A stretch of DNA of 64,000 bases from a virus. The stretch spans positions 32,046 to 96,045 of the IMG/VR virus record IMGVR_UViG_3300042311_001316; one strand, written 5' to 3'. Of the stretch, positions 15,731-34,783 are shown one piece after another; position 1 is the stretch's first letter; each line of letters starts with the position of its first letter. Both the position numbers and the translations under genes were made by a program. Under the pieces are notes generated by a model that did not search any database, was not told the DNA's origin, and saw only the letters and a program-made list of their open reading frames with translations.

Positions 15731-15762
15731 AAAGTAGAAAACAATTAATTGTTTTCTACTTT
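15731..15762. terminator. Bidirectional terminator between convergent genes
   Basis: Perfect 16-base arms (AAAGTAGAAAACAATT and its complement) with no loop spacer; the left arm follows the nuclease gene and the right arm contains the stop codon of the leftward radical SAM gene. Confidence 0.7.
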
Positions 15763-16928
15763 GATTTAGGAATTTTAGAATCAGCACTTGAAACACAACT
15801 TTTACTTATGCATTTTGTTGGTTGATCAAATATTTTAAATCCATTTACTAAATCTCCTAATGGTTGATCAGCACAACTATAGCCGCGTTTAACAATTCCA
15901 TTTGGTTCACGAATAATAATACTTTGATAACCAGAATTACAATTCCAATTTTCAAAATTATTAAAATTAAAACTGTTCATACGTTCAGCTTGATCAAGAT
16001 ACCATTTTTTGTTTTCTTCATCGGTTAATTCTACTTGCATTATTTGTGGAATTTTTTCTTGATTTTCTAAAACATCTTGTAATTTTTTATATTTTGGACG
16101 GGTTGGAATTTTATTATTTTTATCTAATGCTTGTTGTGTAAAGTCTCGTTGTGGCATACCATTATAAAGACGATTTAACATGTCTTGTGAATATCCATCA
16201 ACAATCTTTGTAGCATTATAATTGCTTTGTGGTTTTAATGTTGTATTAATCCCCAATTCATGAAAATAAAGTGCATTTTCCCAATCGAATTCAAATAAAT
16301 CAGGACGCATAACCATATTAATTGTTACTTGTATATCATTTTCTTGACAATATAATAATTTTTCAATAAATTTTTCTTTTTTAGCAAATTCAGAATGAAA
16401 ACTAGCTGTAATACTTACACGATGTAAATTTTTAGTTACTTCAACATATTCTTTTAACCATTTTAAATTTTTACTCATATTAGTTGTCATATGCACACTT
16501 TGATAATTTGTTTTTTCCAAATGAGTTGTATAATGATTTAAAATTTTTAAATAATCTGGATGTGCAGTAGGTTCACCACCAGAAAAACTAAAATGAAATG
16601 AATTAAAATTGTTTTCATTAGCTTGATAGATAATTTCATCAATTGTTTTTGTAATTACATCTAATGGTCGAAAATCTTTAATGTGTGTACTGGCGTAGCC
16701 CCAGCAGTAGGAGCAATGGGCATTTTCATATTTTTTCCCATTTACTTCAATAATTTTTTTAGATTTTTCATCAGGTTTTTTTAAAAAATTAAAATTGCAA
16801 TATCTTTGCAAAATCCAACTGACATTGAATAGATCACGCTCTAACATAGTGCGTTGACCAAATGATTTTATCTTATCAAAGGGAATTTTAGTAAAGTCAT
16901 ATTGTGACCATTTTAAATTATCGTTCAT
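15756..16928 (-). CDS. Radical SAM enzyme with split cluster motif
   Basis: 390 residues. The [4Fe-4S] ligands appear to be Cys44 in WILQRYCNF and Cys72/Cys75 in HCSYCWGYA. They would read CNFxCSYC but for an insertion of about 25 residues (Lys-rich, then a VNGKKY hairpin) between the first and second Cys. FSFSGGEPTAHPDYL is the SAM-binding GGEP motif. The C-terminal part has further Cys (NWNCNSG, YSCAD, CISKSC) that could bind an auxiliary cluster. It is not of the N-twitch type of its three neighbours. It starts after its own TAAATATT element, 15 bp from the next gene. Confidence 0.8.
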   Translation of the reverse strand: MNDNLKWSQYDFTKIPFDKIKSFGQRTMLERDLFNVSWILQRYCNFNFLKKPDEKSKKIIEVNGKKYENAHCSYCWGYASTHIKDFRPLDVITKTIDEIIYQANENNFNSFHFSFSGGEPTAHPDYLKILNHYTTHLEKTNYQSVHMTTNMSKNLKWLKEYVEVTKNLHRVSITASFHSEFAKKEKFIEKLLYCQENDIQVTINMVMRPDLFEFDWENALYFHELGINTTLKPQSNYNATKIVDGYSQDMLNRLYNGMPQRDFTQQALDKNNKIPTRPKYKKLQDVLENQEKIPQIMQVELTDEENKKWYLDQAERMNSFNFNNFENWNCNSGYQSIIIREPNGIVKRGYSCADQPLGDLVNGFKIFDQPTKCISKSCVSSADSKIPKSK

Positions 16929-16932
16929 AAAT

Positions 16933-16940
16933 AATATTTA
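16933..16940 (-). promoter_or_regulatory. Late-promoter-like element before 15756..16928
   Basis: Minus strand ACTAAATATTATTTATG precedes the radical SAM start, without a ribosome-binding site; it lies between two co-directional radical SAM genes and would give the last one its own late transcript. Confidence 0.45.
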
Positions 16941-16942
16941 GT

Positions 16943-18004
16943 TTAACTTTTAAATAATTTTGTCAATTTAAAAAAGTCTTGTTTTCTCAATTGATCTAAT
17001 TTATTGTTGTTTTCTAAAAAATTATTCCAATTTCCTTCTTTGATATTCAACAAATATTTTTTTATTTTATCAAATTGATTTTCAGAATAATAATCAATTA
17101 AATATTGTTTTTTATCAAATGAAATATGTTTTAAGTTTAAATAATCAGGATGTTCTAAAATATTCCAATAAATTTCACGATCACACCAATTATCTAATTC
17201 TTTTAAAAATTCGATATTGGTTATTTGAACTGTGCAGTGAATTTTTATTTCAGCTTTAAGTTGTTTTATAGTTTCATAATTTTTTAAAAATTGATTCCAT
17301 TTTGCAGGATAACGAATATACTCATAAACATTTTCAATTCCATCAACCGACAAATGTAATTTTAAATTAGAAAATTTTTCCCATAATTTTAAAACTTTAT
17401 CAGGTAATACAGTTAAATTTGTATTGTACTTTAATTCTATATTAGTTTTGTTATTATCGATCAACCATTGTAATATATCAATATGATGAGGGTTCAATAA
17501 AGGTTCTCCACCTGTAAAATAAATTGCTTCAATAAATTGTAAATTATTTTTTAATTGAACAAAAAATTCTTGGTTTTTATCCCAATTGTAAAGTTTAGTT
17601 TGTTCATTCCACATTTTTTGATGATCTTCTTGCCAAGCAGAACTAGAATAGCCATTACACATTCTACAACGTAAATTACAACTATTACCTAATCTTAAAT
17701 CTAAATAAACAATTTCTGTTTTTTCATTGTTTTTTATTTTTTTTAAATGAACAGAAAATTTTTCATTATAAGCTAATCTTGCACTTTTTAAACCAAAACT
17801 TTCTTCATTAAAACATCGTTTACAAACTGTTGGTTTTTTATTTTCCAACATTTCATTTTTAATTGATTTAAGGTAATTTTCTTTGTATTCTTCTATTTGA
17901 TCAAAGCGATAATTTGAAGATGATTGTGCATTACAGCAAACACGTAATTTTCCTGTTGGAGTAGTTGCTAAATGAATCCAAGGTAAAACACATAAATTAT
18001 TCAT
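16943..18004 (-). CDS. N-terminal-twitch radical SAM protein 1
   Basis: 353 residues. The N-terminus (CVLPWIHLATTPTGKLRVCC, then CKRC at 61-64) is a cysteine-rich region like the N-terminal twitch seen in a subfamily of radical SAM proteins. It is followed by the radical SAM core with CNLRCRMC (Cys109, Cys113, Cys116), FTGGEPLL (165-168) and LHLSVDGIENVYEYIRYPAKW. It shares this whole layout with the proteins at 17997 and 20664. Substrate unknown. Its start overlaps the upstream gene by 8 bp. Confidence 0.8.
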   Translation of the reverse strand: MNNLCVLPWIHLATTPTGKLRVCCNAQSSSNYRFDQIEEYKENYLKSIKNEMLENKKPTVCKRCFNEESFGLKSARLAYNEKFSVHLKKIKNNEKTEIVYLDLRLGNSCNLRCRMCNGYSSSAWQEDHQKMWNEQTKLYNWDKNQEFFVQLKNNLQFIEAIYFTGGEPLLNPHHIDILQWLIDNNKTNIELKYNTNLTVLPDKVLKLWEKFSNLKLHLSVDGIENVYEYIRYPAKWNQFLKNYETIKQLKAEIKIHCTVQITNIEFLKELDNWCDREIYWNILEHPDYLNLKHISFDKKQYLIDYYSENQFDKIKKYLLNIKEGNWNNFLENNNKLDQLRKQDFFKLTKLFKS

Positions 18005-19067
18005 CGATCCAACCTACTATTTCTTTGTCGATAACATCTTTATAATTTAAATTTCTAGTTGTATTAAAATAGTTTAAAGCAAATTTTAATTGTTCTTTAT
18101 CAAATTTATTTTCTTGTTGAATAAAATTAACTAATTCATCGTATTGATTGTGATTTTTTAATAATTGTAATTTGTTTAAAATGTATTCTTTTTTATCAGT
18201 TATATTGGCTTGGAAATATTCAGGCTTTCTTAATATCTCAAAATTTATTGGGATATTAAAATATTCATTTATTTTACCTAATTCACAAATATTAAAAAGC
18301 TGTACTGTACAATTAATCAATTGTTTTATATGTTGAAATTGTTGTAATTTAATTAAATTTTCTTCTATAATAGAAAATTTCAAAGGATAACGAATATATT
18401 TAAAAACATTATCTAAACCATCAATTGAGATTTTTATTTTGGCTTTGAGTTTATCAGTTAAATCAAAAAATTCTTCATCCCAAACAGATAAATTTGTTAC
18501 AATATTTAATTGTGGGCTTAAATTATTTTCAACTAAATGTTGTAATACTTTTTTATTATTAATATCTAATAAAGGTTCGCCACCTCGCAAATTAATTCTT
18601 TTTGCATTTTTTAAAAAAGGTTTAACTATATCAAAATTTAATTCTGATTTTAAATTTTTGCCTTTATAATGAATTGGTACATTTTTATTTTTAACCTCTG
18701 ATGCTATTGCCGAAGAACAACGTGGCGTACACATAATACATTTACTGTTACAAATATTAGAAAAATTTAAATCTAAAATTTCTGCTTGATCAAAAAATTC
18801 AGTTAATTTGTTTGGTAAAATAAATTGTTCATTTACAGTTAATCTTAAAGATTTTTTTCCTAATTCTTCATCTTTTTCACAACGCAAACAATTTTTTGGA
18901 AATTTATTATTAATAAAATCATTTCTAATTTGTTTCATAATTTCAGAATTATGGCGATTTTCAATGGGAATATTTTCAAAAGGCATATTTATTACAAAAC
19001 CACACGGTACAAACGTGCCATCTGAATGAAAACCATAACTTTTCCAAGGCATTACACATTTAACCAT
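17997..19067 (-). CDS. N-terminal-twitch radical SAM protein 2
   Basis: 356 residues from the ATG at 19067 (MVKCVMPWKSYGF). N-terminal Cys pattern (CVMPW, PCGF, CLRC), cluster motif CNSKCIMC (Cys106, Cys110, Cys113), LRGGEPLLD, and IKISIDGLDNVFKYIRYPLKF, parallel to the other two paralogs. The start lies inside the end of the sulfotransferase gene. The three paralogs are diverged from each other, so each may act on a different substrate or step. Confidence 0.8.
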   Translation of the reverse strand: MVKCVMPWKSYGFHSDGTFVPCGFVINMPFENIPIENRHNSEIMKQIRNDFINNKFPKNCLRCEKDEELGKKSLRLTVNEQFILPNKLTEFFDQAEILDLNFSNICNSKCIMCTPRCSSAIASEVKNKNVPIHYKGKNLKSELNFDIVKPFLKNAKRINLRGGEPLLDINNKKVLQHLVENNLSPQLNIVTNLSVWDEEFFDLTDKLKAKIKISIDGLDNVFKYIRYPLKFSIIEENLIKLQQFQHIKQLINCTVQLFNICELGKINEYFNIPINFEILRKPEYFQANITDKKEYILNKLQLLKNHNQYDELVNFIQQENKFDKEQLKFALNYFNTTRNLNYKDVIDKEIVGWIDE

Positions 19068-19845
19068 TATCAATCCAATCTAAAACTTCATTCCAATTTA
19101 AAATTATTTTATTTACATTATCAAAAGAGTAAGGATTTTTTCTTACAAAACCTTCATGATTAAAAGAACTTTTTTCAAAAATTGTTTCACCAATTTCATG
19201 TGGTAATTTATTTACAATTGAATTATATTCAATATTTTTATAAATTGAAAATTTATCTTTTGTTTGAATAAAAATTTCATATCGTTTTTTTATTTTATCA
19301 ACTGTATTTTTATCTAAATTAAATGGTTCGGGTAATTGATACTCTAATCCATTTAACAAATGAGTTGGATTATTTGAAAACCAAGAAATTGCATAACTTG
19401 CTATAATTTCTTTTAAATCACGATGTAAAACAATTGCTTGATAATTTTCTTTCAAATACTCAAAATCATCATCGGGAATTAAATGATGACTTAAAATTTT
19501 TAAAAAATAATGTTGATGTTTGTATTTTTCTAAAATTGTTTTAACTTTATAATCGTTTTTTAATAAAATATGATTTTTATTTATTAAATCTTCTTGGCAA
19601 GTAATATAAACTTCATTGGGAATTTTTCTTGTTCCTGGCGAATGTCTTACTTGAACTAAATTTTCATTTGTATCAACTAACCAGGGACATTCATTTTTAT
19701 TTTGATTGAATAACTCAGTTGGAGTTACACCAAAACTACAACTTGTTTTTGTTGCTAAATTATTATAAAATAAATAAAGTTGTAAACTACGATGTAATAA
19801 AAAACTTCCACTTCTACCACAAGAATAAACAAAATACTTTTTCAT
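19060..19845 (-). CDS. Sulfotransferase-like protein
   Basis: 261 residues. The N-terminus KKYFVYSCGRSGSFLLHRSL holds the PAPS 5'-phosphosulfate loop (G-R-S-G-S, residues 10-14). VLHRDLKEIIASYAISWF is the 3'-phosphate-binding arginine/serine motif. The family moves sulfate from PAPS to a hydroxyl or amine on sugars, peptides or small molecules. It is embedded in the radical SAM/amidinotransferase operon, so its acceptor may be that pathway's product. Confidence 0.75.
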   Translation of the reverse strand: MKKYFVYSCGRSGSFLLHRSLQLYLFYNNLATKTSCSFGVTPTELFNQNKNECPWLVDTNENLVQVRHSPGTRKIPNEVYITCQEDLINKNHILLKNDYKVKTILEKYKHQHYFLKILSHHLIPDDDFEYLKENYQAIVLHRDLKEIIASYAISWFSNNPTHLLNGLEYQLPEPFNLDKNTVDKIKKRYEIFIQTKDKFSIYKNIEYNSIVNKLPHEIGETIFEKSSFNHEGFVRKNPYSFDNVNKIILNWNEVLDWIDNG

Positions 19846-19852
19846 TATCTAT

Positions 19853-20686
19853 TTACTTTTTCAAATAAGTCAATAAAGCTCTAGTACCAATTAGTTTATT
19901 TTCAAAAATTGCACTATGAATACAATTTGTTTTTGTTAAATTAAAATCAAAACAAAGTTTTTCATATTCTTCTCGATAATAGTTCCATAAAAAATTATCA
20001 CCTAATGTTTCTATATAATGTAATGCCATAGCAGAATTAGTTTTATCAATCATATCATAAGCGTTCATTATACCAATACTTGTATTAGTTAAATCATTTT
20101 TAGATAAAATAACTCCAATTCTATTATTCATCATATCAAAAGATTTACTTAAACTAAAACCAATTTGTTTTATTTGACAATGACTTAAATCTAAAGTTAA
20201 TTGTTCGCTACAACCCAACCAACAAGCATCAATATAAATATCAATATTTCTTTCCGAACATATTTGTGAAATATCATTCCAATTATTGGGTAAAGATGAT
20301 GTGCATGTATTTGGTATGCTAATTATTAAAGGTATATTATTTTTTAGTTCTAATAATCCAACAGAATTATTGCCTAATTTTTGATGATATGAATATTCAC
20401 CATGTAAAACTTGTATTTTATTTGATTGATAACAATTATTAATAAAACCAGTACAGCCATTGGTTAAGTAATTATAATTAAAATTTTCTAATCCATATAT
20501 ATTATTATTTTTTGTAACATATTCGATAATTTTACTTTTTATTATTGATTGAAATTTTTTATCAGTTATTATTGATCGATATTTTTTTATGTCAAAAGAA
20601 AAATACGTATCATAAAAAATCTTATTCCAAATTGGTTTTGGGGTTGGTAATAAAAATTCTTTATTATAATATGGTGCAGTTTTCAT
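19853..20686 (-). CDS. Small PLP-dependent aminotransferase-like enzyme A
   Basis: 277 residues from the ATG at 20686, which has AAGGA at proper spacing; an ATG two codons upstream is also possible. Fold-type I features: YLTNGCTGFINNCYQ (cofactor phosphate loop), IDIYIDACWLG with the Asp that pairs with the PLP ring nitrogen, and GFSLSKSFDMMNNRIGVIL with Lys181 as the Schiff-base lysine and the conserved Arg. It is about 120 residues shorter than usual aminotransferases, lacking most of the C-terminal domain. Paralog of 23919..24689. Confidence 0.65.
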   Translation of the reverse strand: MKTAPYYNKEFLLPTPKPIWNKIFYDTYFSFDIKKYRSIITDKKFQSIIKSKIIEYVTKNNNIYGLENFNYNYLTNGCTGFINNCYQSNKIQVLHGEYSYHQKLGNNSVGLLELKNNIPLIISIPNTCTSSLPNNWNDISQICSERNIDIYIDACWLGCSEQLTLDLSHCQIKQIGFSLSKSFDMMNNRIGVILSKNDLTNTSIGIMNAYDMIDKTNSAMALHYIETLGDNFLWNYYREEYEKLCFDFNLTKTNCIHSAIFENKLIGTRALLTYLKK

Positions 20687-21710
20687 TAGCATTCCTTAAA
20701 ATATTATCAATTGCAATTGGACTTATATCTTTAAATTTTTTTCCTGTTTTAGTAAACCATAAATTTTCATAAACTATTAATTGTTTTTTATCAATATCAG
20801 AGATATTGATGTTATCAATTAATAAATTGTCGATTATTATTTTTGTTTTTTCTGGTAAATCAATTTCATTTAAAATATCTTTTGTTAATAAATTACAATT
20901 TAAAAAATTAGGATTTCTTAATATATGAAAGTACCAAGGTATATTTAAATTTAAAAAATAATCTTCAATTGATTTTAAATGCTCTAAATTTAACCATTGA
21001 ACAGTTGTTTGAGTTCTTACGTCTGATATTTTTTTAAATTCTTGTAAGTTTTTTTCTAAGGTTTTCCAATCAGTTCCTAATCGAATATATTCTGCAATAT
21101 GTCCTATTCCATCCACACTAACATTTATTTTTATATTTGAAAATTTTGATAATATTTGCCATATTTTTTTATTAAAAACACTTCCATTGGTTAAAAATTC
21201 TATTTCACAGGATAAATTATCGATTGATATTAATTTTTCTAAAATATCAATAACTTTATTTTCTAAAAATGGTTCACCTCCTGCAAAACTAATAAATTTA
21301 GCATCGTGTAAATTATTCAAATAATCATAATTTTTAATAACTTTATTATGTTTTTGTTTTAATTCCTTTTCCCATTTATTACTTGCGCTTGGCCCACACA
21401 TAATGCATTGAAAATTACAATGATTAGATAATTTAAAATCAAACGTTTGATAAATTTTATGATCTTTTTTAGCATCTTCAAATGAATATAAATTTCTGTT
21501 TAATTCTAAAATTCTTCTTGATTTTTTTCCTATTTTTTCATCATTATAACATCTTTTACATTCTGCGCTTTGCAAGTCATTTAACATATTATTTTTTATT
21601 TTTTTTAAAACATCATCATTGACGATTGCATCAGAATGGGCGCATAATCTTTGAGTATTATCAGTTTGGATATAAAAATGATTCCAAGGAACAGGACAAA
21701 AAGTTTTCAT
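20664..21710 (-). CDS. N-terminal-twitch radical SAM protein 3
   Basis: 348 residues. CPVPWNHFYIQTDNTQRLC and CKRC form the N-terminal Cys-rich region; cluster motif CNFQCIMC (Cys98, Cys102, Cys105); FAGGEPFLE; IKINVSVDGIGHIAEYIRLG. Starts with an ATGA overlap from 21707 and overlaps the next gene by 23 bp. With 16943 and 17997 it forms a divergent trio in one operon. Confidence 0.8.
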   Translation of the reverse strand: MKTFCPVPWNHFYIQTDNTQRLCAHSDAIVNDDVLKKIKNNMLNDLQSAECKRCYNDEKIGKKSRRILELNRNLYSFEDAKKDHKIYQTFDFKLSNHCNFQCIMCGPSASNKWEKELKQKHNKVIKNYDYLNNLHDAKFISFAGGEPFLENKVIDILEKLISIDNLSCEIEFLTNGSVFNKKIWQILSKFSNIKINVSVDGIGHIAEYIRLGTDWKTLEKNLQEFKKISDVRTQTTVQWLNLEHLKSIEDYFLNLNIPWYFHILRNPNFLNCNLLTKDILNEIDLPEKTKIIIDNLLIDNINISDIDKKQLIVYENLWFTKTGKKFKDISPIAIDNILRNANENCTIL

Positions 21711-22108
21711 TTTTTCATTATTTCATTAAAGTAATTTTCGGGCCAATTGTTATAATAAACTGTTTTTTTTAATATATTTCTTTTAATTTCCATATCTTTT
21801 CTGTTTTGTATAAAAATACAATTGGTAAAATTTTTAACAAAAAGTCCAGATGTTGGTGTTGATTTTAAAACGATCCAATCATCATTAAATTTTAAAGTTA
21901 AAAATGTTAATAAAATATTATCAATTTTATTATCACACCAAACGACATAAATTTTATCATTATCTGTAAAATTAAAATTATCAGTTGGTAATAAAAAATC
22001 AATTTTATTATTTATTCTAGCTGATTGGGCATAAGGACAAATATTTTTCTTTTCGATATTTGCTATTGACCATTCAATAAATTGTTTTTTAAATTCATCA
22101 AATTTCAT
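21707..22108 (-). CDS. Hypothetical protein of the biosynthetic island
   Basis: 133 residues, coupled by ATGA on both sides. FIEWSIANIEKKNICPYAQSAR near the start has a conserved-looking Cys-Pro-aromatic-Ala pattern faintly like a small bacterial family of unknown function (DUF1415-type); the rest (DKIYVVWCDNKIDNILLTFL, FIQNRKDMEIKRN) is not recognised. Because it is fully overlapped with its neighbours, it is probably a partner of the amidinotransferase or radical SAM enzyme. Confidence 0.55.
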   Translation of the reverse strand: MKFDEFKKQFIEWSIANIEKKNICPYAQSARINNKIDFLLPTDNFNFTDNDKIYVVWCDNKIDNILLTFLTLKFNDDWIVLKSTPTSGLFVKNFTNCIFIQNRKDMEIKRNILKKTVYYNNWPENYFNEIMKK

Positions 22109-23118
22109 AAATAATTTTCCATTTCACCAACTCTAGCAATATCTTGAGTACAACAATGAATGCCGCCATCCCAAAAATATTGATGTTTAAAATTCCATAT
22201 TATAGGATTTACTTTAAATTTTTCTAATTGATCAAATACTTTTTTATTAAAATGCGTAAAAATAATATTATTTTCATCAATACTTAAAGCATTAACATCA
22301 AAAACAGTTTCATCCACATAACCAACCCAATCTTTTAACCATTTTTGAATAAAATCACCATAAAAATGTTGTTTTCTTAATGATAAAAATTCATTTGGTA
22401 ATGGATTAAATTCTTCAATTAAAATAACATCCCAATTTTTTAATTGTTCAGGAATCCAATCTTTATTCCAAGTAATCAATAATCCTGGTTTAACTAAACA
22501 AATTTTTCCATCAATATGTCCGCCAATAGGAAAATCAACAAATTCACAATCGTAAAATTTGGGTAATATGTTTTTAATCCATTCTTTTCCTTTTAAATTT
22601 CCTTTGCCATTTTTTTCATCTTCTTCTATTGATTGGGATATTAAAATATGTTTACCTAGTTTAATCATATTAGCAGCATCAAAATATAATTCTACATTTT
22701 TATTTTTTTCTATTTTAGGTTGTGGCATAGATAAATTAACAAAATCATCGATCCAATTTTTTTTATAACTTAAATGTTCAAATTGACGATTATCATGTTT
22801 AGTAAACATATCAATTGCTAAATTACCATAAACAAATAAAACATCTCTTGGCATCAAAGGTGGACTCATAAACTTATAATCATTCCAAGGTAAAGAAATA
22901 TTTTCTTCAAAATTATCTACTAAAATATCAGGGCGAATAACTTCAATATCAAATGTTTTTAGTAATTTTTCTAATTCATTTAATTGTTCATTTGTTTCAT
23001 GTAATATAATTTGTATGCTATTTTTAAATTCTTGATTTTTATGATAATCAAAAATCTTTTGGTCATATGTTTTACCTACAATAATTTTTTTTAATTTTTG
23101 AAACTCAGTAAAAGTCAT
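22105..23118 (-). CDS. Amidinotransferase-like enzyme A
   Basis: 337 residues with the order of motifs seen in arginine:glycine and arginine:inosamine amidinotransferases: MPRDVLFVYGN, YFDAANMIKLGKHILIS, DFPIGGHIDGKICLVKPGLLITW with the catalytic His-x-Asp, and WDGGIHCCTQDIAR near the C-terminus with the nucleophile Cys322. The family moves the amidino group of arginine to an amine to give a guanidino product. Starts by ATGA overlap from a 2OG oxygenase. Paralog of 24686..25699. Confidence 0.8.
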   Translation of the reverse strand: MTFTEFQKLKKIIVGKTYDQKIFDYHKNQEFKNSIQIILHETNEQLNELEKLLKTFDIEVIRPDILVDNFEENISLPWNDYKFMSPPLMPRDVLFVYGNLAIDMFTKHDNRQFEHLSYKKNWIDDFVNLSMPQPKIEKNKNVELYFDAANMIKLGKHILISQSIEEDEKNGKGNLKGKEWIKNILPKFYDCEFVDFPIGGHIDGKICLVKPGLLITWNKDWIPEQLKNWDVILIEEFNPLPNEFLSLRKQHFYGDFIQKWLKDWVGYVDETVFDVNALSIDENNIIFTHFNKKVFDQLEKFKVNPIIWNFKHQYFWDGGIHCCTQDIARVGEMENYL

Positions 23119-23885
23119 TCGATTTCCTCATAAAGAGTAAACGCCAATCCACATTTTGTTTTAGTATTATTTTTTCTATGATCAGCACTACAATGAATTT
23201 GTGTTGGATCAATAACCATAATTGAACCAATTTTCCAAGGCAATATTTTTTCTATATGTAAATCAGTTAAATTTTCTTTTGGAAGAAATGAAAGATATTC
23301 ATCGTATATTTTTTGATCTTGCCAATTATTTTCTTTATTATATTTTCTTGATCCTTTTTCTAAATCATAAAATTCTATATCATCATGAGAATAAACATCT
23401 TTCCAATAACCTTTTACGCTATCTTTTTTAAATCCTTGACAAAAAATAGTACCATAATTTAAAACTCGTTCACGAAAGCAAATTAATCCAGAATGTAAGT
23501 CTTCATTTTTACTTGGGGTTACAAATAAAGGTATGACAAAATGTTTTAAAGGTATTAATTTATGATCAAATATTGATGATTCTTCTTCGCTCATACTGTC
23601 TGCGTGTAAAGCATAAGGATGTAAAGTTAAATAAAAATTTCCACCATAATGTTTTTTTGAGAAATCTTTATTTATTAATCTTTTAAACCTATCAGAAAAT
23701 TTATCAGCAATAATAGTATGTTTATTTTTAATTTTAAACAACATTGTGCCACTTTCTTTTATTGTTGTTGATGAATGCTCTCGCCACATAAAATCAATCA
23801 TCCAAGAAATTTCTTCTTTAGAGAAAAAATCATCAACTTGAAAACATTCACTTAAATTTGTTTTCCATTTATCAAAATTAGTCAT
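23115..23885 (-). CDS. 2OG-Fe(II) oxygenase-like protein A
   Basis: 256 residues. The iron ligands are probably His94-x-Asp96 in YALHADSM and His231 in PTQIHCSADHRKNNTKTKCGLAFT, with a basic residue nearby for 2-oxoglutarate. PLKHFVIPLFVT and WKIGSIMVIDP are typical jelly-roll strands. It is the first gene of the main leftward island operon and starts after a TAAATATTT element. Confidence 0.65.
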   Translation of the reverse strand: MTNFDKWKTNLSECFQVDDFFSKEEISWMIDFMWREHSSTTIKESGTMLFKIKNKHTIIADKFSDRFKRLINKDFSKKHYGGNFYLTLHPYALHADSMSEEESSIFDHKLIPLKHFVIPLFVTPSKNEDLHSGLICFRERVLNYGTIFCQGFKKDSVKGYWKDVYSHDDIEFYDLEKGSRKYNKENNWQDQKIYDEYLSFLPKENLTDLHIEKILPWKIGSIMVIDPTQIHCSADHRKNNTKTKCGLAFTLYEEIE

Positions 23886-23887
23886 GT

Positions 23888-23896
23888 AAATATTTA
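23888..23896 (-). promoter_or_regulatory. Late-promoter-like element heading the main island operon
   Basis: Minus strand ATTTAAATATTTACATG precedes the oxygenase start codon at 23885. It would drive at least 23885 to 16943, whose genes overlap or nearly abut. Confidence 0.5.
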
Positions 23897-23918
23897 AATG
23901 AAAACCGATTTAATGATT

Positions 23919-24689
23919 TTAGTATAAACTAGATAAACAAATTCTTGAATATTCGTTTCCACGATTAAATTGTTTAAACTTACCAAAGCTGTATCCTAAA
24001 ATAACACTATCACTTGGTATTATTTTTAATTTATCACAAATAGAAATTTGTTTAATTCTATATTTTTCATATAACGTATCTATATTATTATGTATAATAT
24101 AATTATAAGCTATATTCATTCCTAGAAACGGTAAATGATTATTTTGATTTAATAATTCAATAGGATCATCATCATATTTTTTAGTAAATCTAATACCACA
24201 TCTATATTGAAAAACCGGAATTATTTTATGCATAGAATGCGCTATAACATCAATACAATTGTTATTTGGTATTTTTATCTTTTTTGTTGTGCCATAATAA
24301 GCCAAATCTAAAAAAACTTTAATATCGTTTACATCACAATAATTTAATATTTCATCAATATTTTGAAAGCATCCGTTATCACAAAACGGAAAACTAATAG
24401 CTAAAATTCCTTCTTTTATTTCTTTAAAATTTTTTATAAAATTAATATTCATATTTAAAAATTTTGCCACATTTTGATAATATGAATATTCACCAACAAA
24501 TAAATTCAAGGTTTTTGTTTTATTTTTCATTAACCAAACATCAATTGATTGTGTTATTCCTGTTGTTATATTAATTTGATCAAAATCATTTATACCTAAA
24601 AATTTTTGATATTTTAATTTATAATCATTTGATAATATAAATGAATTAGTTATTTTATTAAAAATTGGTTTTATTTGTTTTAAACTCAT
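23919..24689 (-). CDS. Small PLP-dependent aminotransferase-like enzyme B
   Basis: 256 residues from the ATG at 24689, which overlaps the amidinotransferase stop as ATGA (a longer start at 24716 is less likely). INITTGITQSIDVWL, VGEYSYYQ, IKVFLDLAYYGTT (Asp128) and IDVIAHSMHKIIPVFQYRCGIRF (Lys155, then Arg) align with the protein at 19853. It too lacks the usual C-terminal domain. Together with the two genes before it, it forms a second copy of the oxygenase-amidinotransferase-PLP module. Confidence 0.65.
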   Translation of the reverse strand: MSLKQIKPIFNKITNSFILSNDYKLKYQKFLGINDFDQINITTGITQSIDVWLMKNKTKTLNLFVGEYSYYQNVAKFLNMNINFIKNFKEIKEGILAISFPFCDNGCFQNIDEILNYCDVNDIKVFLDLAYYGTTKKIKIPNNNCIDVIAHSMHKIIPVFQYRCGIRFTKKYDDDPIELLNQNNHLPFLGMNIAYNYIIHNNIDTLYEKYRIKQISICDKLKIIPSDSVILGYSFGKFKQFNRGNEYSRICLSSLY

Positions 24690-25699
24690 TTTCTTTTTAA
24701 ATCCAAAGTAATACAATGTGGACCACCACCCAATGTCCTACAATGTGTTAGTTTAATTGGTATGCAATCAAAATTGTGGTTTTTTAATAATTTCATTAAA
24801 GGTTTTTGTGTTTCTTCTACTATAATAGTTCGTTCATCAATACTTAATATATTCATAGCCATCCAAATACTACTATTACCAAAGTCTTGATGTATTTGAG
24901 TAGGGATCGGTTCATCGAAATAAATACAATTCCAATTTTTGAAAAATTCCGGCAGGTTATGTTTATTAACTCTTGAAGAATTTAATAAAATTGTATTATC
25001 ATTTAATGGAACAAAAGTTGTATCAACATGCATGTAAGAATAAAAATTTTCTAAAATATGTAGTTTATAATTTTTTGGTATATTTCTTTTTAACCATTCT
25101 GCGCCTTTTAAATTTCCAGTATTGCTTACTAAATAAAATATATTATTATCTACTTTAAAAATATTTGCGGCATCAAATAAAATTTCTTCATTTGTTAATG
25201 TTGGTATTTTTAAATCATTTAATTGATAATTTTTATCTAATAATTTTTGCTTTGGGGCGCTGATCCAGTTAAACCCTTCTTGAAATTTTTCTTCAAAAAT
25301 TTCAAATAAAGAGAAATTCTCAAAATATCTTGATCGTAACACATTTGGTGATTCAATTATAGTATTTTCTATTACTAATGCTGTGTCTCTTGGGCAATAA
25401 GAAAAATATTGTTCAGTTTTCCAAAAGCTATTACTAATTTTATTTTTATTAATTGGTTTACTTCTATATGTTTTTATATTATGCGACCTTAATAATTCTT
25501 CAAATTTTTCTAAATCATCGAATGTTTCATCAATAATATTTTTAGGATATTGACCTAATTTCAATTTTTTAAATTCATTATTTGATAAATTAGCATATTC
25601 GATACTATGCATAGATTTATCTTTTGTATTAGGTTTAATAGCATTTATAATATTACCTATTATAACTTCTTGTAATGTTGAATATTCGTTTTTAATCAT
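24686..25699 (-). CDS. Amidinotransferase-like enzyme B
   Basis: 337 residues, the same length as paralog A. YCPRDTALVIENTIIES, ILFDAANIFKVDNNIFYLVS, YSYMHVDTTFVPLNDNTILL (catalytic His-x-Asp) and TLGGGPHCITLDLKRK with nucleophile Cys329. The GGGPHC end is closer to the glycine amidinotransferase pattern than paralog A is. ATGA overlaps join it to the genes on both sides. Confidence 0.8.
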   Translation of the reverse strand: MIKNEYSTLQEVIIGNIINAIKPNTKDKSMHSIEYANLSNNEFKKLKLGQYPKNIIDETFDDLEKFEELLRSHNIKTYRSKPINKNKISNSFWKTEQYFSYCPRDTALVIENTIIESPNVLRSRYFENFSLFEIFEEKFQEGFNWISAPKQKLLDKNYQLNDLKIPTLTNEEILFDAANIFKVDNNIFYLVSNTGNLKGAEWLKRNIPKNYKLHILENFYSYMHVDTTFVPLNDNTILLNSSRVNKHNLPEFFKNWNCIYFDEPIPTQIHQDFGNSSIWMAMNILSIDERTIIVEETQKPLMKLLKNHNFDCIPIKLTHCRTLGGGPHCITLDLKRK

Positions 25700-26289
25700 T
25701 TATAGATGCTCTTTCTTGGTATTACATTTTCAGTATCAGACGTATAATATATAAATCTCAATGCTTCTGCATTATTAGAATTTTTACTAACTGAATGCCA
25801 AGAATTTTCAGTATTTTCAAATATAACAAAATTATTTTTAATCCAATCGTATGTAACTTTATTATTATCATTTTCTAAAATTAATTGACAATCGCTATTA
25901 TTTAAAAAATAAATTCCAGTTAAAAATCTTTTTAAACCTAGATAGCTATTAATTGTATAATCTATATGTGCTTCAACCATATGATTTTCAGGTATTCGCA
26001 TAAAACCCCCGCCCCAAAAATTCATATCAACAATTATTCCTTTTTTATTAAAATAATTTTCTAATTTTTTTATAAATTTATGATTATAAAAATAATTTAC
26101 GGGTATATTAGTAATATTTTCATCTAAATCATAAATCCAAGTATACTCGTGTAATAATGTGTTTTTATTTTGATAAATTTTGCATTCTTTTTCTGTTAAT
26201 TTATTAAAATAAATTTCTAATGTATTTGTAATTTCATTAGAAAAAACATTTGTTAATAATAAATGATTATAAGGTTTATTTTTAAACAT
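25696..26289 (-). CDS. 2OG-Fe(II) oxygenase-like protein B
   Basis: 197 residues. VEAHIDYT gives His108-x-Asp110; ENSWHSVSKNSNNAEALRFIYYTS gives His165 and Arg178, the full facial triad and 2OG-binding Arg. LKRFLTGIYFLNN is a core strand. Smaller than paralog A and not closely similar. First gene of a short leftward operon from the bidirectional element at 26290. Confidence 0.75.
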   Translation of the reverse strand: MFKNKPYNHLLLTNVFSNEITNTLEIYFNKLTEKECKIYQNKNTLLHEYTWIYDLDENITNIPVNYFYNHKFIKKLENYFNKKGIIVDMNFWGGGFMRIPENHMVEAHIDYTINSYLGLKRFLTGIYFLNNSDCQLILENDNNKVTYDWIKNNFVIFENTENSWHSVSKNSNNAEALRFIYYTSDTENVIPRKSIYK

Positions 26290-26301
26290 ATAAATATTTA
26301 T
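26290..26301. promoter_or_regulatory. Palindromic bidirectional late-promoter-like element
   Basis: ATAAATATTTAT is a perfect 12-base palindrome and fills the entire gap between divergent start codons at 26289 (leftward oxygenase) and 26302 (rightward sulfotransferase). Neither gene has room for a ribosome-binding site, so transcripts from this element would be nearly leaderless. Confidence 0.5.
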
Positions 26302-26943
26302 ATGAAAATATTATTATTATCTTCTGAAAGAAGTGGAAGTACCGCATTTCAAGAATTTTTAGCTAATAAAAATAATATTAAAAATTATTTAGAACCTTTT
26401 GAAAATACTCAAAATAAAAGATTTACAAAAAGTAATGAATATTCAATAATTAATGCTATAAATATATTATGTAACGATAATAATTATATTATAAAAATAC
26501 AAATGAATCAAATGAATGATAATAAAATAAAATTTATAATTAATGAGTTACAAATTGATAATATAATAGTATTATTGAGAAAAAATTTTATTGAACAATG
26601 TTTAAGTAATCAATTATCAAATTATACGGATAAATGGCACAATTCAGATTTAAAACCAAAAGATAACATAATACATCATGAAATGATAAAAAATAAAACA
26701 TTTAAGGCAAATGAAAAATATTTTATAAATCAAGAAACTTACAATAAAAGATTATTAAATTGGGGGTTAAAAAATCCTATTTATTTTCATGAAGATAATA
26801 TTGTTAATTTTAATTGTACACGTTATAAAAAATTAAATAACAATATTATCACTAATTTTACTAATCAAAATGAAATATTTCATTTTAATACTAATTATAA
26901 TGTTAGTTTGAGAAAATATTTAAATGAAAATTTATATTATTAA
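26302..26943 (+). CDS. Sulfotransferase-like protein, diverged
   Basis: 213 residues from the ATG at 26302; a frame extending upstream to 26263 would overlap the divergent gene and is rejected. MKILLLSSERSGSTAFQEFL carries the PAPS loop; IIVLLRKNFIEQCLSNQLS corresponds to the 3'-phosphate motif. It is shorter than the sulfotransferase-like protein at 19060. Overlaps the next gene by 20 bp. Confidence 0.65.
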   Translation: MKILLLSSERSGSTAFQEFLANKNNIKNYLEPFENTQNKRFTKSNEYSIINAINILCNDNNYIIKIQMNQMNDNKIKFIINELQIDNIIVLLRKNFIEQCLSNQLSNYTDKWHNSDLKPKDNIIHHEMIKNKTFKANEKYFINQETYNKRLLNWGLKNPIYFHEDNIVNFNCTRYKKLNNNIITNFTNQNEIFHFNTNYNVSLRKYLNENLYY

Positions 26944-27091
26944 AGAACCAACAGAAAATGATTTTTTTTATATAGAAGATTTAATTTCTTATTTTAATTT
27001 AGAAATAGTCGAAGATATTAAACAAGCAGATATTTTGTTTTTTCAACCTTATTATGATTATGGTAATTATAATAATGCACATACGATTTAA
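26924..27091 (+). CDS. 5' part of an interrupted glycosyltransferase-like gene
   Basis: 55 codons (MKIYIIKEPTENDFFYIEDL, then DIKQADILFFQPYYDYG) ending in a TAA inside the loop of a perfect 21-bp inverted repeat. The same frame continues past the stop into 27098..27964. The region corresponds to the N-terminus of the paralog at 27951 (MKIFDPN..., IEQADFVWIENSP), so the two parts together make one normal gene. Confidence 0.5.
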   Translation: MKIYIIKEPTENDFFYIEDLISYFNLEIVEDIKQADILFFQPYYDYGNYNNAHTI

Positions 27092-27111
27092 TCGTATGTG
27101 CATTATTATAA
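27067..27111. repeat. Perfect 21-bp palindrome inside a coding region
   Basis: Arms 27067-27087 and 27091-27111 are exact reverse complements, separated by TTA. The in-frame TAA at 27089-27091 is in the loop. It is neither a terminator (no T-run) nor intergenic. Possible origins are a templated insertion, a recoding/bypass structure or an assembly artefact. Confidence 0.85.
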
Positions 27112-27964
27112 ACCTATTGTTTATTTTGATATTTGTGATTATAGCCCATTATATGAAAATAAAGAACTATTTAATTTTTTAAAAGAAAACAATATAAAAT
27201 TAGTAACCTTTGATAAAGAAAATATTAAAATTATAAATGATGAATTTATAATGAATTATTGGGAATTAAAAAGTTATCTAACAACATTAACAATAAAAAA
27301 TGAAATTAATAAAAGATTTTTATGTTTAAATCGCAGGATTCATGAATTTAGAAATACATTAATTGGTGAATTATATAATCAAAATTTATTAGATAATTTT
27401 TTATTAGGTTTTGGGCGCGAACGATCAGGTAAAAAACAACATTTTGATTATAATAATTTAAAATATATAACAAATAACAATTATAAAAATTTTGAAAAAC
27501 AATTACCAATTATATTACAAAACAAAGTTAACAATTTAACTGTTGAAGATATATTTTTATTAAAACAAGATTTGTTCTCTAAAACCCAAATGAGTATAGT
27601 AACAGAAACAAACTTTAATTTTCCCATTTTAACAGAAAAAACATATTTAGAATTAAGTAATAATCGACCTTTTATAATAGCTGGCGGCGCTTATTCATTA
27701 AAAAAATTACACAATAAAGGTTTCAAAACTTTTTCTTTATTATGGGATGAAAATTATGATTTAATAGAAGATCATACAAAAAGGTTAAATGCTATCGTAG
27801 AAGTAATTAGATTTCTAAATAATTTAGATAGTAAAGAGTTTAATAATATTATTGAGAAATCAAAAATAATATCAGAATATAATAAACAAATATGTAATGA
27901 AATTTTACAAAAAACTAAAAATAACTTTAATCAATATATTAGGAATATAAATGAAAATATTTGA
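27098..27964 (+). CDS. 3' part of an interrupted glycosyltransferase-like gene
   Basis: 288 residues in the same frame as 26924 (174 bases apart). KPIVYFDICDYSPLY follows, then RFLCLNRRIHEFRN and a C-terminal block MSIVTETNFNFPILTEKTYLELSNNRPFIIAGG, FSLLWDENYDLIEDHTKR that aligns with the next gene. The E-T...E-K...E-L...G-P-F-I pattern resembles the C-terminal donor-binding half of fucosyltransferase/exostosin-type GT-B enzymes. Without the upstream 55 codons it has no ribosome-binding site, and its ATG-like start would be a CTG/GTG/ATG inside the palindrome arm. Confidence 0.6.
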   Translation: MHYYKPIVYFDICDYSPLYENKELFNFLKENNIKLVTFDKENIKIINDEFIMNYWELKSYLTTLTIKNEINKRFLCLNRRIHEFRNTLIGELYNQNLLDNFLLGFGRERSGKKQHFDYNNLKYITNNNYKNFEKQLPIILQNKVNNLTVEDIFLLKQDLFSKTQMSIVTETNFNFPILTEKTYLELSNNRPFIIAGGAYSLKKLHNKGFKTFSLLWDENYDLIEDHTKRLNAIVEVIRFLNNLDSKEFNNIIEKSKIISEYNKQICNEILQKTKNNFNQYIRNINENI

Positions 27965-28931
27965 TCCAAACTATAAAAATAATATTGAAATAAAAAATAA
28001 TTGGAATTGGTATGGATTACTTGGTTTAAAAAGATTAATTCCTGAAATAGAAATAACTGAAAATATCGAACAAGCAGATTTTGTTTGGATTGAAAACTCA
28101 CCTAATAAAAGAGTTAGTAAAAGAAAAGATTTTCCTGTTTATTCAAATAAAACACATATTTTAAATGCAGGTTTAGAATATGAAAATACTAAATATGATT
28201 TACCAAAAAATTATATTGTGTTTGATTGTAATGAAAAAAACAATCAAATAGATTTTAACTTATGTAAATTAACAAGTTGGTTAGATGGTCAATTAGTCAC
28301 AGGAAATAAAGAAATAAAATTTAATTTTGGATTTCGTCGCCCTGATATTCATAGAAACTCATTGGAAAAATTAATAAATAATTTTTCTGTTTATCATTAT
28401 CGTTGTGAAATTCCCGAAAAAATAAACGATGATATTTTTTTAAATTCAAAATATGCCGATTTATTTCAAGAAAATATATCGGATAATATCTTTACAGATA
28501 TTGCTGGTGTTCACAATCAAGTTCCTGAATCTTTTGTTAACATGTATAAAGAAACAAATATATCAATTGTAATGGAAACAATGTTTTGGCATGATTTATG
28601 CTTTGATAGTGAAAAAGTTCATCGAGAGTTAGCTTGTGGAATGATACCAATTATTTTTGGACCTATTGGTATTGTTGAAAAATTAAAAAATCAAGGATTT
28701 ATTTTTCCTGAACATTTATGGGATCATAGTTATGATAAGATTATTGATCCATTAAAACGATTTGATTTTCTCGTTGACCAATTATTTGAAATAGAAAAAA
28801 CATCTAATAGAGAATTTGATTTATGGAAAAAAGAATTTGAAATAATTGGTTTTAAAAATCATCAAACAGCTAAACGGAATTTAAAAAATGATATTGATAA
28901 TCTTAGAAAAATTTTTCATAATTTTCTGTAA
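27951..28931 (+). CDS. Glycosyltransferase-like protein (fucosyltransferase/exostosin-like C-terminus)
   Basis: 326 residues, intact paralog of the interrupted gene. HRNSLEKLINNFSVYHYRCEIPE precedes ISIVMETMFWHDLCFDSEKVHRELACGMIPIIFGPIG and FPEHLWDHSYDKIIDP. The E-K-x-x-R-E-L-A-x-G-x-x-P-I-x-x-G pattern is typical of GT-B enzymes that recognise nucleotide sugars. It overlaps the previous gene by 14 bp and converges on 28903..29280. Glycosylation of the island's product or of virion proteins is possible. Confidence 0.6.
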   Translation: MKIFDPNYKNNIEIKNNWNWYGLLGLKRLIPEIEITENIEQADFVWIENSPNKRVSKRKDFPVYSNKTHILNAGLEYENTKYDLPKNYIVFDCNEKNNQIDFNLCKLTSWLDGQLVTGNKEIKFNFGFRRPDIHRNSLEKLINNFSVYHYRCEIPEKINDDIFLNSKYADLFQENISDNIFTDIAGVHNQVPESFVNMYKETNISIVMETMFWHDLCFDSEKVHRELACGMIPIIFGPIGIVEKLKNQGFIFPEHLWDHSYDKIIDPLKRFDFLVDQLFEIEKTSNREFDLWKKEFEIIGFKNHQTAKRNLKNDIDNLRKIFHNFL

Positions 28932-29280
28932 TATCGTTTTTTAACAAAAATAAAACTTCATCTGTTTCATTAAAAAAGCTAAATGATAAGTAGAATGTAT
29001 ATATTATTTTACCATCTTCACAATCATCAATTATATTTGTATGTTCTATGTGATAGTTTACGTTCATGTGCCCAATTAACGAATTAATATCAATTAAAAA
29101 TTTATTAATTAATTTATTATTTAATATTGGGAGTTTGTTGTTGAGTTGATAAAAACCGTGATTGGAATTAATAACTATTGAGCATAAACCTGATCCATCT
29201 TTATCTAATTTTCCCATAGCCGAAACGGGATAAATTTTTTCATCACCGATAAAGAATTTTAATCTTGTTTGAGAAACCAC
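28903..29280 (-). CDS. Hypothetical protein with DEVLFLLK tail
   Basis: 125 residues: KFFIGDEKIYPVSAMGKLDKDGSGLCSIVINSNHGFYQL and a C-terminal TFYLSFSFFNETDEVLFLLKND. One of three consecutive small leftward genes sharing this strand-helix ending. Overlaps the convergent GT-like gene by 29 bp. Confidence 0.65.
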   Translation of the reverse strand: MVSQTRLKFFIGDEKIYPVSAMGKLDKDGSGLCSIVINSNHGFYQLNNKLPILNNKLINKFLIDINSLIGHMNVNYHIEHTNIIDDCEDGKIIYTFYLSFSFFNETDEVLFLLKNDITENYEKFF

Positions 29281-29537
29281 AATATTTCATCCAAATTGTT
29301 TTTAAATTCGATTGTTATTCTTATTTTATTAAACCATTCATTATCATAATTTATTGTACCATATTTTTCAATGTTAATATTGATATTTTCCGGCAAAGTA
29401 TCAATATCATCAACAATTATTTGATTTATTTCTTTATCTGTATGATAAATTGGTAACATATAAGCTAATTGGTTTAATTTTTTGTCTGAAGTTAAGATTA
29501 ATTCTGGATAACATTCAATTATGTAATATTTTGTCAT
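29259..29537 (-). CDS. Hypothetical protein with DEILWFLK tail
   Basis: 92 residues from the ATG at 29537 (MTKYYIIECYPELILTSDKK). A start at 29576 would reach deep into the upstream gene. The ending IRITIEFKNNLDEILWFLKQD matches its neighbours. Overlaps both adjacent genes by about 20 bp. Confidence 0.65.
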   Translation of the reverse strand: MTKYYIIECYPELILTSDKKLNQLAYMLPIYHTDKEINQIIVDDIDTLPENININIEKYGTINYDNEWFNKIRITIEFKNNLDEILWFLKQD

Positions 29538-29817
29538 TATAAATTCTTTCATTTTGTAATAGCCATAATATTTCATCTACTTCATTATTAAATTTAAAAG
29601 AAATACTAATAAATTTCAAAGAAATACAGTCATATTCTATTTTTAATAGACTATATATTATATTTTTAGGATAATTAATTTTAAAAATATGGTTAAGTTT
29701 TTTTATATGATCTTGATCACTTGTATTATCATTTAACTCAATGAAATACCCAAAAGCATATTCTTTGTTTTTTGTAAAAGTTACAGGGTTTATAGAATAT
29801 ATAAAATATTCATTCAT
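29515..29817 (-). CDS. Hypothetical protein with DEILWLLQ tail
   Basis: 100 residues; LKFISISFKFNNEVDEILWLLQNE near the C-terminus followed by ten further residues. Shares one base with the stop of the dNMP kinase gene, so it is read from the same mRNA. Confidence 0.65.
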   Translation of the reverse strand: MNEYFIYSINPVTFTKNKEYAFGYFIELNDNTSDQDHIKKLNHIFKINYPKNIIYSLLKIEYDCISLKFISISFKFNNEVDEILWLLQNERIYNDKILHN

Positions 29818-34757: not shown

Positions 34758-34783
34758 GATTTGCAGCTAATTAGCTGCAAATC
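34758..34783 (-). terminator. Rho-independent terminator of the AAA+ gene
   Basis: 13-base perfect arms (GATTTGCAGCTAA and complement) containing the AAA+ stop codon, followed on the minus strand by TTTTATAAGG. Confidence 0.65.

What the first reader, a model, noticed from the sequence alone, without database searches (positions are those of the whole stretch)
19853..26289. Duplicated 2OG-oxygenase / amidinotransferase / small-PLP-enzyme module
The order oxygenase (25696), amidinotransferase (24686), PLP enzyme (23919) is repeated as oxygenase (23115), amidinotransferase (22105), then after two inserted genes PLP enzyme (19853). The amidinotransferases have equal length (337) and both PLP proteins are unusually short (256 and 277 residues). 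This suggests a core reaction unit copied once, with the second copy gaining radical SAM and other genes.
Basis: partly seen in the sequence, partly recalled or inferred. Interest (0 to 1): 0.75.

Follow-up and report, generated by a model that had tools for sequence, protein, structure and literature searches.

The report
Phage operon with two guanidine modules
A large phage carries, side by side in one operon, two separately inherited enzyme sets that look built to put guanidine groups on a small molecule or surface sugar; they are not a fresh duplication, and each set turns up on its own in other phages.

Summary
The genes are there as described, in one tightly packed 12-gene run of a phage. 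The "copied once" reading fails. The two amidinotransferases (27% identical) fall in two separate clades, each up to 46-48% identical to enzymes of other phages; an AU test rejects them as sisters (p = 2e-6). The two oxygenases share no detectable sequence similarity. The two short PLP proteins are homologous but too divergent to place.

What is there instead: two guanidinylation modules with separate histories. Module A (2OG oxygenase, StrB-like amidinotransferase, miniature class-I aminotransferase) and module B (amidinotransferase B, 2OG-type oxygenase, miniature aminotransferase, DUF6875-like protein, radical SAM enzymes) each recur in other phages. Amidinotransferase and mini-PLP distances correlate (Mantel r = 0.80). 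Beside other viral A-type amidinotransferases the mini-PLP's place is taken by a sugar aminotransferase (DegT) or a nucleotide-sugar dehydrogenase: 9, 5 and 5 of 23 clusters, with no overlap within 4 kb.

Best reading: each module builds an amine and guanidinylates it with host arginine, probably on a sugar-like unit for a surface glycan. Step order, donor and product are inferred. New variant of a known kind (phage glycan/secondary-metabolite islands).

The parts
25696..26289 (-). Oxygenase A (OXA), 2OG-Fe(II) oxygenase, 197 aa; first gene of the run, overlaps the next gene by 4 nt
   Evidence: PF13640 26.4 bits, just under the 27 cut-off; a relative beside an A-type amidinotransferase in another phage (L244) scores 49.4; HxD, distal His and Arg invariant in 7 of 7 aligned
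24686..25699 (-). Amidinotransferase A (AT-A), StrB-like, 337 aa
   Evidence: phmmer to StrB 1bwd E 8.7e-72; D176, H224, D226, C329 fall in the conserved FDAAN, HxD and HC motifs (catalytic roles recalled)
23919..24716 (-). Mini-PLP enzyme A (class-I aminotransferase fold), 265 aa from TTG, 256 aa from an ATG that overlaps AT-A by 4 nt
   Evidence: AlphaFold2 pLDDT 86.7, pTM 0.84; best PDB matches are fold-type I aminotransferases and relatives; D137, S161, K164, R172, R258 invariant in 45 of 45
23115..23885 (-). Oxygenase B (OXB), 2OG-type, 256 aa
   Evidence: HxD...H...K invariant in 8 of 8; no 2OG Pfam family among 8 relatives; low-confidence model (pLDDT 59.6) matches 2OG-type enzymes
22105..23118 (-). 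Amidinotransferase B (AT-B), divergent AGAT-family enzyme, 337 aa
   Evidence: HsvA 5wpi E 5.5e-16; FDAAN, HID and HC motifs kept; separate clade from AT-A
21707..22108 (-). Small partner gene of AT-B, 133 aa, DUF6875-like
   Evidence: DUF6875 in 4 of 10 relatives, best E 9e-4, none for the window protein itself; in 18 of 46 viral AT-B clusters within 4 kb
20664..21710 (-). Radical SAM protein rSAM4 (N_Twi_rSAM)
   Evidence: NF033640 223 bits, cut-off 170
19853..20692 (-). Mini-PLP enzyme B, 279 aa (277 from second ATG)
   Evidence: 25% to mini-PLP A, E 3e-10; same invariant residues; very long branch
19060..19845 (-). P-loop protein, sulfotransferase-like by recalled motif only
   Evidence: no Pfam match
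17997..19073 (-). Radical SAM protein rSAM3 (N_Twi_rSAM)
   Evidence: NF033640 209 bits
16943..18004 (-). Radical SAM protein rSAM2 (N_Twi_rSAM)
   Evidence: NF033640 320 bits
15756..16928 (-). Radical SAM protein rSAM1, last gene of the run
   Evidence: PF04055 43.6 bits; relative in L126 at E 1.1e-141
26263..26943 (+). Divergent flanking gene, sulfotransferase-like by recalled motif only
   Evidence: no Pfam match
27098..27964 (+). Flanking gene GT1, glycosyltransferase-like by recalled motif
   Evidence: no Pfam match, no PDB match for its family profile; its domain is fused to a DegT aminotransferase in L040 and to an NDP-sugar epimerase in L037
27951..28931 (+). Flanking gene GT2, related to GT1
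   Evidence: 30% to GT1 over 127 aa

Best explanation
The operon-like run (15756-26289) holds two guanidinylation modules of separate descent. In each, a 2OG oxygenase oxidises a building block, a miniature aminotransferase puts an amine on it, and an AGAT/StrB-type amidinotransferase moves the amidino group of host arginine onto that amine. Radical SAM enzymes and flanking glycosyltransferase-like genes then finish and attach the unit, most likely to a surface glycan. Shown: families, conserved catalytic motifs, gene layout, separate ancestry of the two amidinotransferases, repeated partnership of amidinotransferase and mini-PLP, and the presence of a DegT sugar aminotransferase, instead of the mini-PLP, next to the nearest relatives of amidinotransferase A. 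Inferred: the order of steps, arginine as donor, a sugar-like acceptor, and the glycan target.
For: AT-A matches StrB at E 8.7e-72. Mini-PLP keeps D, K, R, R in 45 of 45 sequences and folds like class-I aminotransferases. PLP tree of 50 representatives: 28 of 28 near AT-A on one side of a branch (support 85/76), 13 of 15 near AT-B in one clade (100/99). Mantel r, AT vs PLP: 0.80 over 43 pairs, 0.68 within A (28), 0.83 within B (15). Of 23 viral AT-A clusters (80% identity), within 4 kb: mini-PLP 9, DegT 5, nucleotide-sugar dehydrogenase 5, none 4, never two of the three (chance of no overlap of PLP with the other ten 0.0009, a figure worked out after seeing the pattern). The three groups that form a clade with AT-A (L034, L037, L040) all have DegT, in L034 on the opposite strand. 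In the phage of L126 the order is nucleotide-sugar dehydrogenase, OXA, DegT, AT-A (44% to the window's), with an NDP-sugar epimerase some 5 kb upstream of the dehydrogenase. The 146-kb near-identical record has no DegT and no nucleotide-sugar dehydrogenase match. DegT and epimerase are fused to the GT1-like domain in L040 and L037.
Against: The exclusion is local and not complete: of 16 records with mini-PLP searched whole, 5 hold a DegT match somewhere, 3 of them records with an AT-A-linked PLP (L091, L092, L111); and L126's phage, outside the 23 clusters, has DegT and dehydrogenase together. The DegT and dehydrogenase queries came from L244 and L245, so distant members may be missed. Module B has no sugar gene of its own in the window. 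The window's PLP B does not join the B clade in the tree and lowers the B correlation (0.94 without it). Glycosyltransferase and sulfotransferase labels rest on recalled motifs and fusions. Co-variation is partly expected from shared phage descent. A promoter scan was at chance (109 sites, 110.7 expected). No product, substrate or expression data.
Confidence: 0.5

Rival explanations
1. Guanidino amino acid route: the amidinotransferase first makes a non-standard guanidino amino acid, the 2OG oxygenase hydroxylates it, and the PLP enzyme cyclises or transaminates it, as in capreomycidine (VioC/VioD) or enduracididine (GntC) chemistry, giving a small secondary metabolite.
For: GntC (8fft) is among the tied structural matches of mini-PLP A (Z 19.1, best row 20.2); the Lys and Lys+8 Arg spacing is that of K219 and R227 named for GntC in PMC10367076 (passages); AT-A also matches SxtG and HsvA; OXB's matches include amino acid hydroxylases such as GriE.
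Against: Z values within about 1 are ties, so GntC is not singled out; the aligned range starts at GntC residue 43, past Glu9, Ser25 and Ser26 which that paper names; the swap with DegT and nucleotide-sugar dehydrogenase points to sugars.
Confidence: 0.2
2. Post-translational modification: the radical SAM enzymes and P4H-like oxygenase modify virion peptides, and the amidinotransferase guanidinylates side chains of tail fibre proteins.
For: Four radical SAM genes, three of the N_Twi_rSAM family; a tail fibre gene (37361-40168) lies about 11 kb from the run; OXB's first structural match is a prolyl-4-hydroxylase.
Against: I did not look for a precursor peptide; relatives of AT-A sit with sugar genes; the P4H match is one of many similar-scoring 2OG folds.
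Confidence: 0.12
3. DNA base hypermodification, as with 7-deazaguanine or modified pyrimidines in other phages.
For: Campylobacter phage CP220 has a QueD-like gene about 11 kb from its amidinotransferase; phages use PLP and radical SAM enzymes for base modification (recalled).
Against: In the 146-kb near-identical record no QueD or thymidylate synthase match, and one QueC match under the family cut-off, in a 557-aa frame that by size and position is the NAD synthetase. The record may be incomplete.
Confidence: 0.07
4. Tandem duplication of one module within this phage lineage.
For: Same gene order; PLP pair not rejected as sisters (p-AU 0.23).
Against: AT pair rejected as sisters; oxygenases without similarity; each module found apart elsewhere; PLP precedes AT in 6 of 8 other A clusters, the reverse of the window.
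Confidence: 0.03
5. Auxiliary host metabolism: plain glycine amidinotransferase feeding creatine-type metabolism during infection.
For: An ocean virus survey reports guanidinoacetate N-methyltransferase enriched in viruses (PMC11360552, passages); some phage records name relatives 'glycine amidinotransferase'.
Against: Does not explain PLP, oxygenase and radical SAM partners; among solved structures AT-A scores best with StrB, not AGAT.
Confidence: 0.05

Closest known systems
Streptidine branch of streptomycin biosynthesis (StrB1, StsC; pathway recalled)
   Same: StrB-type amidinotransferase acting after an aminotransferase; two guanidino groups put on in two rounds; AT-A lies in a 20-row group with a Streptomyces hygroscopicus enzyme and four other bacterial ones
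   Different: Window uses mini class-I PLP proteins, not DegT; 2OG oxygenases; virus-encoded; the second amidinotransferase is of a distant clade
Radical SAM / amidinotransferase cluster of Campylobacter phages CP220 and CPt10 (PMC2853527, start of abstract and passages)
   Same: Amidinotransferase in a cluster with five radical SAM genes (12 and 10 genes), called an interchangeable module
   Different: No match to either PLP protein in the CP220 and CC_R7 stretches held (L006, L009; blastp E <= 0.01); CP220's enzyme falls on the A side, CC_R7's on a long branch of its own
Host recognition cluster of pelagimyophages, and the Mosig EXVC030M island (PMC7029224 passages)
   Same: Hypervariable island by tail fibre genes with glycosyltransferases and radical SAM cassettes; Mosig has a mini-PLP relative (25%)
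   Different: No amidinotransferase match in the Mosig stretch held; the window phage's sheath protein is nearest two Rhizobiaceae jumbo phages (37%)
Cyanophage amino acid and sugar secondary-metabolite cluster (PMC7824862, passages)
   Same: Phage island with 2OG enzymes and natural-product type genes, proposed to decorate polysaccharide or make a metabolite
   Different: Built on carbamoyltransferases and a halogenase; the words amidino-, aminotransferase and PLP do not occur in the text held

Membership tests
AGAT/StrB amidinotransferase family | Catalytic Cys, His, Asp motifs and overall homology | tested here: met
   AT-A E 8.7e-72 to StrB, AT-B E 5.5e-16 to HsvA; motifs FDAAN, HxD, HC present in both
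AGAT/StrB amidinotransferase family | Transfer of amidine from arginine | not testable with these tools
   needs enzyme assay
2OG-Fe(II) oxygenase superfamily (OXA) | HxD...H metal triad and basic 2OG ligand | tested here: met
   HxD/H/R in 7 of 7; PF13640 26.4 bits against a 27 cut-off
2OG-Fe(II) oxygenase superfamily (OXB) | HxD...H triad, basic ligand, DSBH fold | tested here: inconclusive
   HxD/H/K in 8 of 8; fold match from a pLDDT 59.6 model; no 2OG Pfam match
Class-I/II PLP aminotransferases | Fold, PLP Asp, Schiff-base Lys, Lys+8 Arg, C-terminal Arg | tested here: met
   45 of 45 keep D137, K164, R172, R258
Class-I/II PLP aminotransferases | Profile match to a class-I Pfam family | tested here: not met
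   No Pfam match for either PLP protein; the 46-row profile reaches class-I chains weakly, best 2o1b at E 2.4e-5
DegT/DnrJ/EryC1 sugar aminotransferases | PF01041 match | tested here: not met
   None for the PLP proteins; none in the 146-kb record
GntC/VioD-type arginine cyclases | N-terminal Glu and Ser-Ser residues | tested here: inconclusive
   Alignment to 8fft begins at its residue 43; ranges give ends only
Recent tandem duplication | Copies are sisters in their trees | tested here: not met
   AT p-AU 2e-6; oxygenases no similarity; PLP undecided
Pelagimyophage host recognition cluster | Island between VrlC and gp14 with tail fibres | tested here: inconclusive
   Tail fibre gene at 37361; VrlC and gp14 not looked for

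The most novel reading that the evidence does not exclude
Phages own an autonomous guanidine-installing pathway whose amine-forming step is done by virus-specific miniature aminotransferases, some 50-150 residues shorter than the cellular enzymes they match, which have displaced sugar aminotransferases next to StrB-type enzymes. This phage stacks two such modules of separate origin in one run and so makes a doubly guanidinylated, streptidine-like unit displayed on a glycan, to change surface charge or recognition.
Probability: 0.25. Interest if true: 0.8.

Novelty: new variant of a known kind. Interest (0 to 1): 0.6.

Why it matters
If right, phages carry a recurring kit for making guanidinylated molecules, a chemistry known from antibiotics and other natural products; none of the papers listed by my searches was seen to describe it as a phage module with a PLP partner. 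It would give a concrete, testable function to phage islands of radical SAM, oxygenase and amidinotransferase genes, noted in Campylobacter phages in 2010, and offers a compact aminotransferase fold (261-342 aa as read from ORFs) to enzymologists.

Tried and rejected

Rejected: tandem duplication (AT trees, oxygenases); DNA modification (no QueD, no thymidylate synthase in the record held); the database name 'glycine amidinotransferase' taken as a function.

Cluster counts depend on 80-90% identity cuts. Rows dropped: 4 of 90 amidinotransferase clusters for length before the tree. The bacterial scan used A-type patterns: none of its 52 loci held a mini-PLP, and bacterial B-type enzymes may exist unseen. 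In 15 phage records the same profile gave 13 matches in 12 records at 233 bits or more, but most of these sequences are in the profile.


Full report
Setting. The window is part of a 96-kb viral record; a 146-kb record, IMGVR_UViG_3300042330_000875, carries the four genes searched at 100% identity and the same gene order. Nearby genes are a tail sheath, a tail fibre gene, an RNA ligase/tail fibre attachment protein, a UvsX-like recombinase and a single-strand DNA binding protein, so this is most likely a myovirus. The sheath is nearest Sinorhizobium phage Phosso and Agrobacterium phage Atu_ph07 (37%). The host is not known.

Anatomy. Twelve genes on the minus strand run from 26289 to 15756 with gaps of -31 to +33 nt. 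Oxygenase A and amidinotransferase A, oxygenase B and amidinotransferase B, amidinotransferase B and the small gene, and the small gene and rSAM4 each overlap by 4 nt; so do amidinotransferase A and PLP A if PLP A starts at its ATG, the tenth codon of the frame. That it is one operon is inferred from this packing.

What the proteins are. Amidinotransferase A is close to StrB (E 8.7e-72) and scores lower with SxtG, HsvA and AGAT. Amidinotransferase B matches the same family weakly (best E 5.5e-16) with the catalytic motifs kept. Oxygenase A has HxD, His and Arg invariant in 7 of 7. Oxygenase B has HxD, His and Lys invariant in 8 of 8, no 2OG Pfam match among 8 relatives, and a model of low confidence (pLDDT 59.6) whose 45 matches at E <= 0.001 all read as 2OG-type enzymes. 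PLP A gives a good model (pLDDT 86.7, pTM 0.84) that matches threonine-phosphate decarboxylase, histidinol-phosphate and aspartate aminotransferases. The PLP Asp, Schiff-base Lys, Lys+8 Arg and C-terminal Arg (roles recalled) are invariant in 45 of 45 sequences. The family runs 261-342 aa as read from ORFs (114 sequences), against 309-419 for the chains listed as matches.

Is it a duplication? Amidinotransferases: 27% to each other, but up to 46-48% (A) and 46% (B) to other phage enzymes. In a tree of 86 representatives (quick search, SH-aLRT only) A lies in a group with bacterial StrB-type enzymes, and B among viral sequences only; the bacterial sequences were fetched with A-type patterns, so bacterial B-type enzymes could be missing. 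The AU test on 39 of these rows rejects sisterhood (p 2e-6). Oxygenases: no similarity. PLP proteins: 25%; sisterhood not rejected (p 0.23), nor PLP B with the 13 other B-linked proteins (p 0.28), as both have end branches of 2.5-3.2 changes per site. DNA: apart from itself, amidinotransferase B finds only three stretches of 45 bases or less in the record.

Two modules elsewhere. Searches by amidinotransferase alone brought 80 A-type and 80 B-type loci, the near-identical record included. Module A appears as oxygenase A, an Asp_Arg_Hydrox-like oxygenase (21.8 bits, cut-off 22.6), PLP, amidinotransferase, radical SAM and GT1-like gene in L070 and many like it, or as a PLP-amidinotransferase pair alone on its strand in L092. 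Module B appears as amidinotransferase B, radical SAM, PLP, oxygenase B, small gene, radical SAM genes, rSAM1 in L126, L128-L130, L134 and L135. By 80% clusters within 4 kb: viral A 23 (PLP 9, oxygenase A 5, oxygenase B 3, radical SAM 9, Asp_Arg_Hydrox-like 14, GT-like 15); viral B 46 (PLP 8, small gene 18, radical SAM 22, oxygenase B 4, GT-like 8); bacterial A 39 (PLP 0, DegT 1). So most B-type and more than half of A-type clusters have no mini-PLP nearby. Order of PLP and amidinotransferase on one strand, window left out: A, PLP first in 6 of 8; B, amidinotransferase first in 6 of 7. The window's A module has the less common order, so the repeated order looks like local reshuffling.

Co-inheritance. 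In the PLP tree (50 representatives) the 28 A-linked proteins, the window's PLP A among them, lie on one side of a branch (85/76); 13 of 15 B-linked form a clade (100/99), and 7 without an amidinotransferase form another (99/93). The two B-linked exceptions are the window's PLP B and L143. AT and PLP distances correlate: r 0.80 over 43 pairs, 0.68 in A, 0.83 in B (0.94 without the window), each p 0.0002. Common phage descent alone would give some of this.

The swap. The three groups that form a clade with amidinotransferase A (L034, L037, L040) have no mini-PLP within 4 kb but a short DegT-family aminotransferase (196 aa, 226 aa, and a domain of a 605-aa protein; in L034 on the other strand). 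In the phage of L126 a nucleotide-sugar dehydrogenase, oxygenase A, DegT (240 aa) and amidinotransferase A (44%) follow one another, with an NDP-sugar epimerase further upstream. That phage has amidinotransferase A with DegT, and amidinotransferase B with the record's only mini-PLP, about 14 kb away. Over the 23 viral A clusters mini-PLP (9), DegT (5) and nucleotide-sugar dehydrogenase (5) never share a 4-kb neighbourhood and 4 have none; the chance figure of 0.0009 was computed after the pattern was seen. It is not a strict rule: L126's phage, not among the 23, has DegT and dehydrogenase together; and over whole records 5 of 16 with mini-PLP also hold DegT, against 3 of 4 in whose locus no mini-PLP was found. 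The 146-kb record has neither DegT nor the dehydrogenase. This is my main ground for reading mini-PLP as the amine-forming step and the substrate as sugar-like. DegT is fused to the GT1-like domain in L040 and an epimerase to it in L037.

How far the mini-PLP is viral. None of 52 bacterial A-type loci holds one. Other phyla were not searched.

Literature. CP220 and CPt10 were described in 2010 with an interchangeable cluster of five radical SAM genes and an amidinotransferase (PMC2853527, start of abstract and passages). Pelagimyophage islands with glycosyltransferases and radical SAM cassettes (PMC7029224, passages) and a cyanophage amino acid/sugar metabolite cluster (PMC7824862, passages) are the nearest concepts. 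Searches for amidinotransferase with phage or virus terms listed no paper whose title, listed abstract or passages I saw describe an amidinotransferase-PLP phage module; the library holds open-licence papers only, and most listed papers were not opened.

Verdict. Ordinary duplication: no. A real, recurrent and apparently undescribed pairing of viral amidinotransferases with miniature aminotransferases, present twice here, with amidinotransferases from two lineages: yes. Function is a reasoned inference at about even odds.

Noticed in passing
27067-27111: Perfect 20-bp inverted repeat with a 5-base loop overlapping the start of the GT-like gene at 27098.
   Followed up: no
28903-29817: Three small tandem genes (125, 105, 100 aa) resemble one another (31-48% over 31-85 aa, E 1e-5 to 9e-5); a small local gene family of unknown role.
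   Followed up: partly
52870-54534: Phage NAD synthetase gene (phrog_36784, E 1e-125).
   Followed up: no
34767-36878: 703-aa protein with two AAA ATPase stretches.
   Followed up: no
L014 and L015-L033 (Mosig-type islands): Mini-PLP relatives without amidinotransferase nearby; in Mosig (L014) the island has proteins annotated as FA_desaturase, FMN reductase, peroxiredoxin, Asp_Arg_Hydrox, taurine dioxygenase and acetyltransferase beside tail fibre genes, and similar-looking neighbours appear in the loci printed.
   Followed up: partly
L034, L035, L036: Two A-type amidinotransferases plus relatives of both oxygenase A and B in one locus, with a short DegT protein; no mini-PLP in the records of L034 and L036.
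   Followed up: partly
L040 9695-11509: Short DegT aminotransferase fused to a GT1-like domain in one 605-aa protein.
   Followed up: partly
L185, L187, L190, PQ898602.1, record of L126: Other phages carrying both A-type and B-type amidinotransferases, so the pairing recurs.
   Followed up: partly
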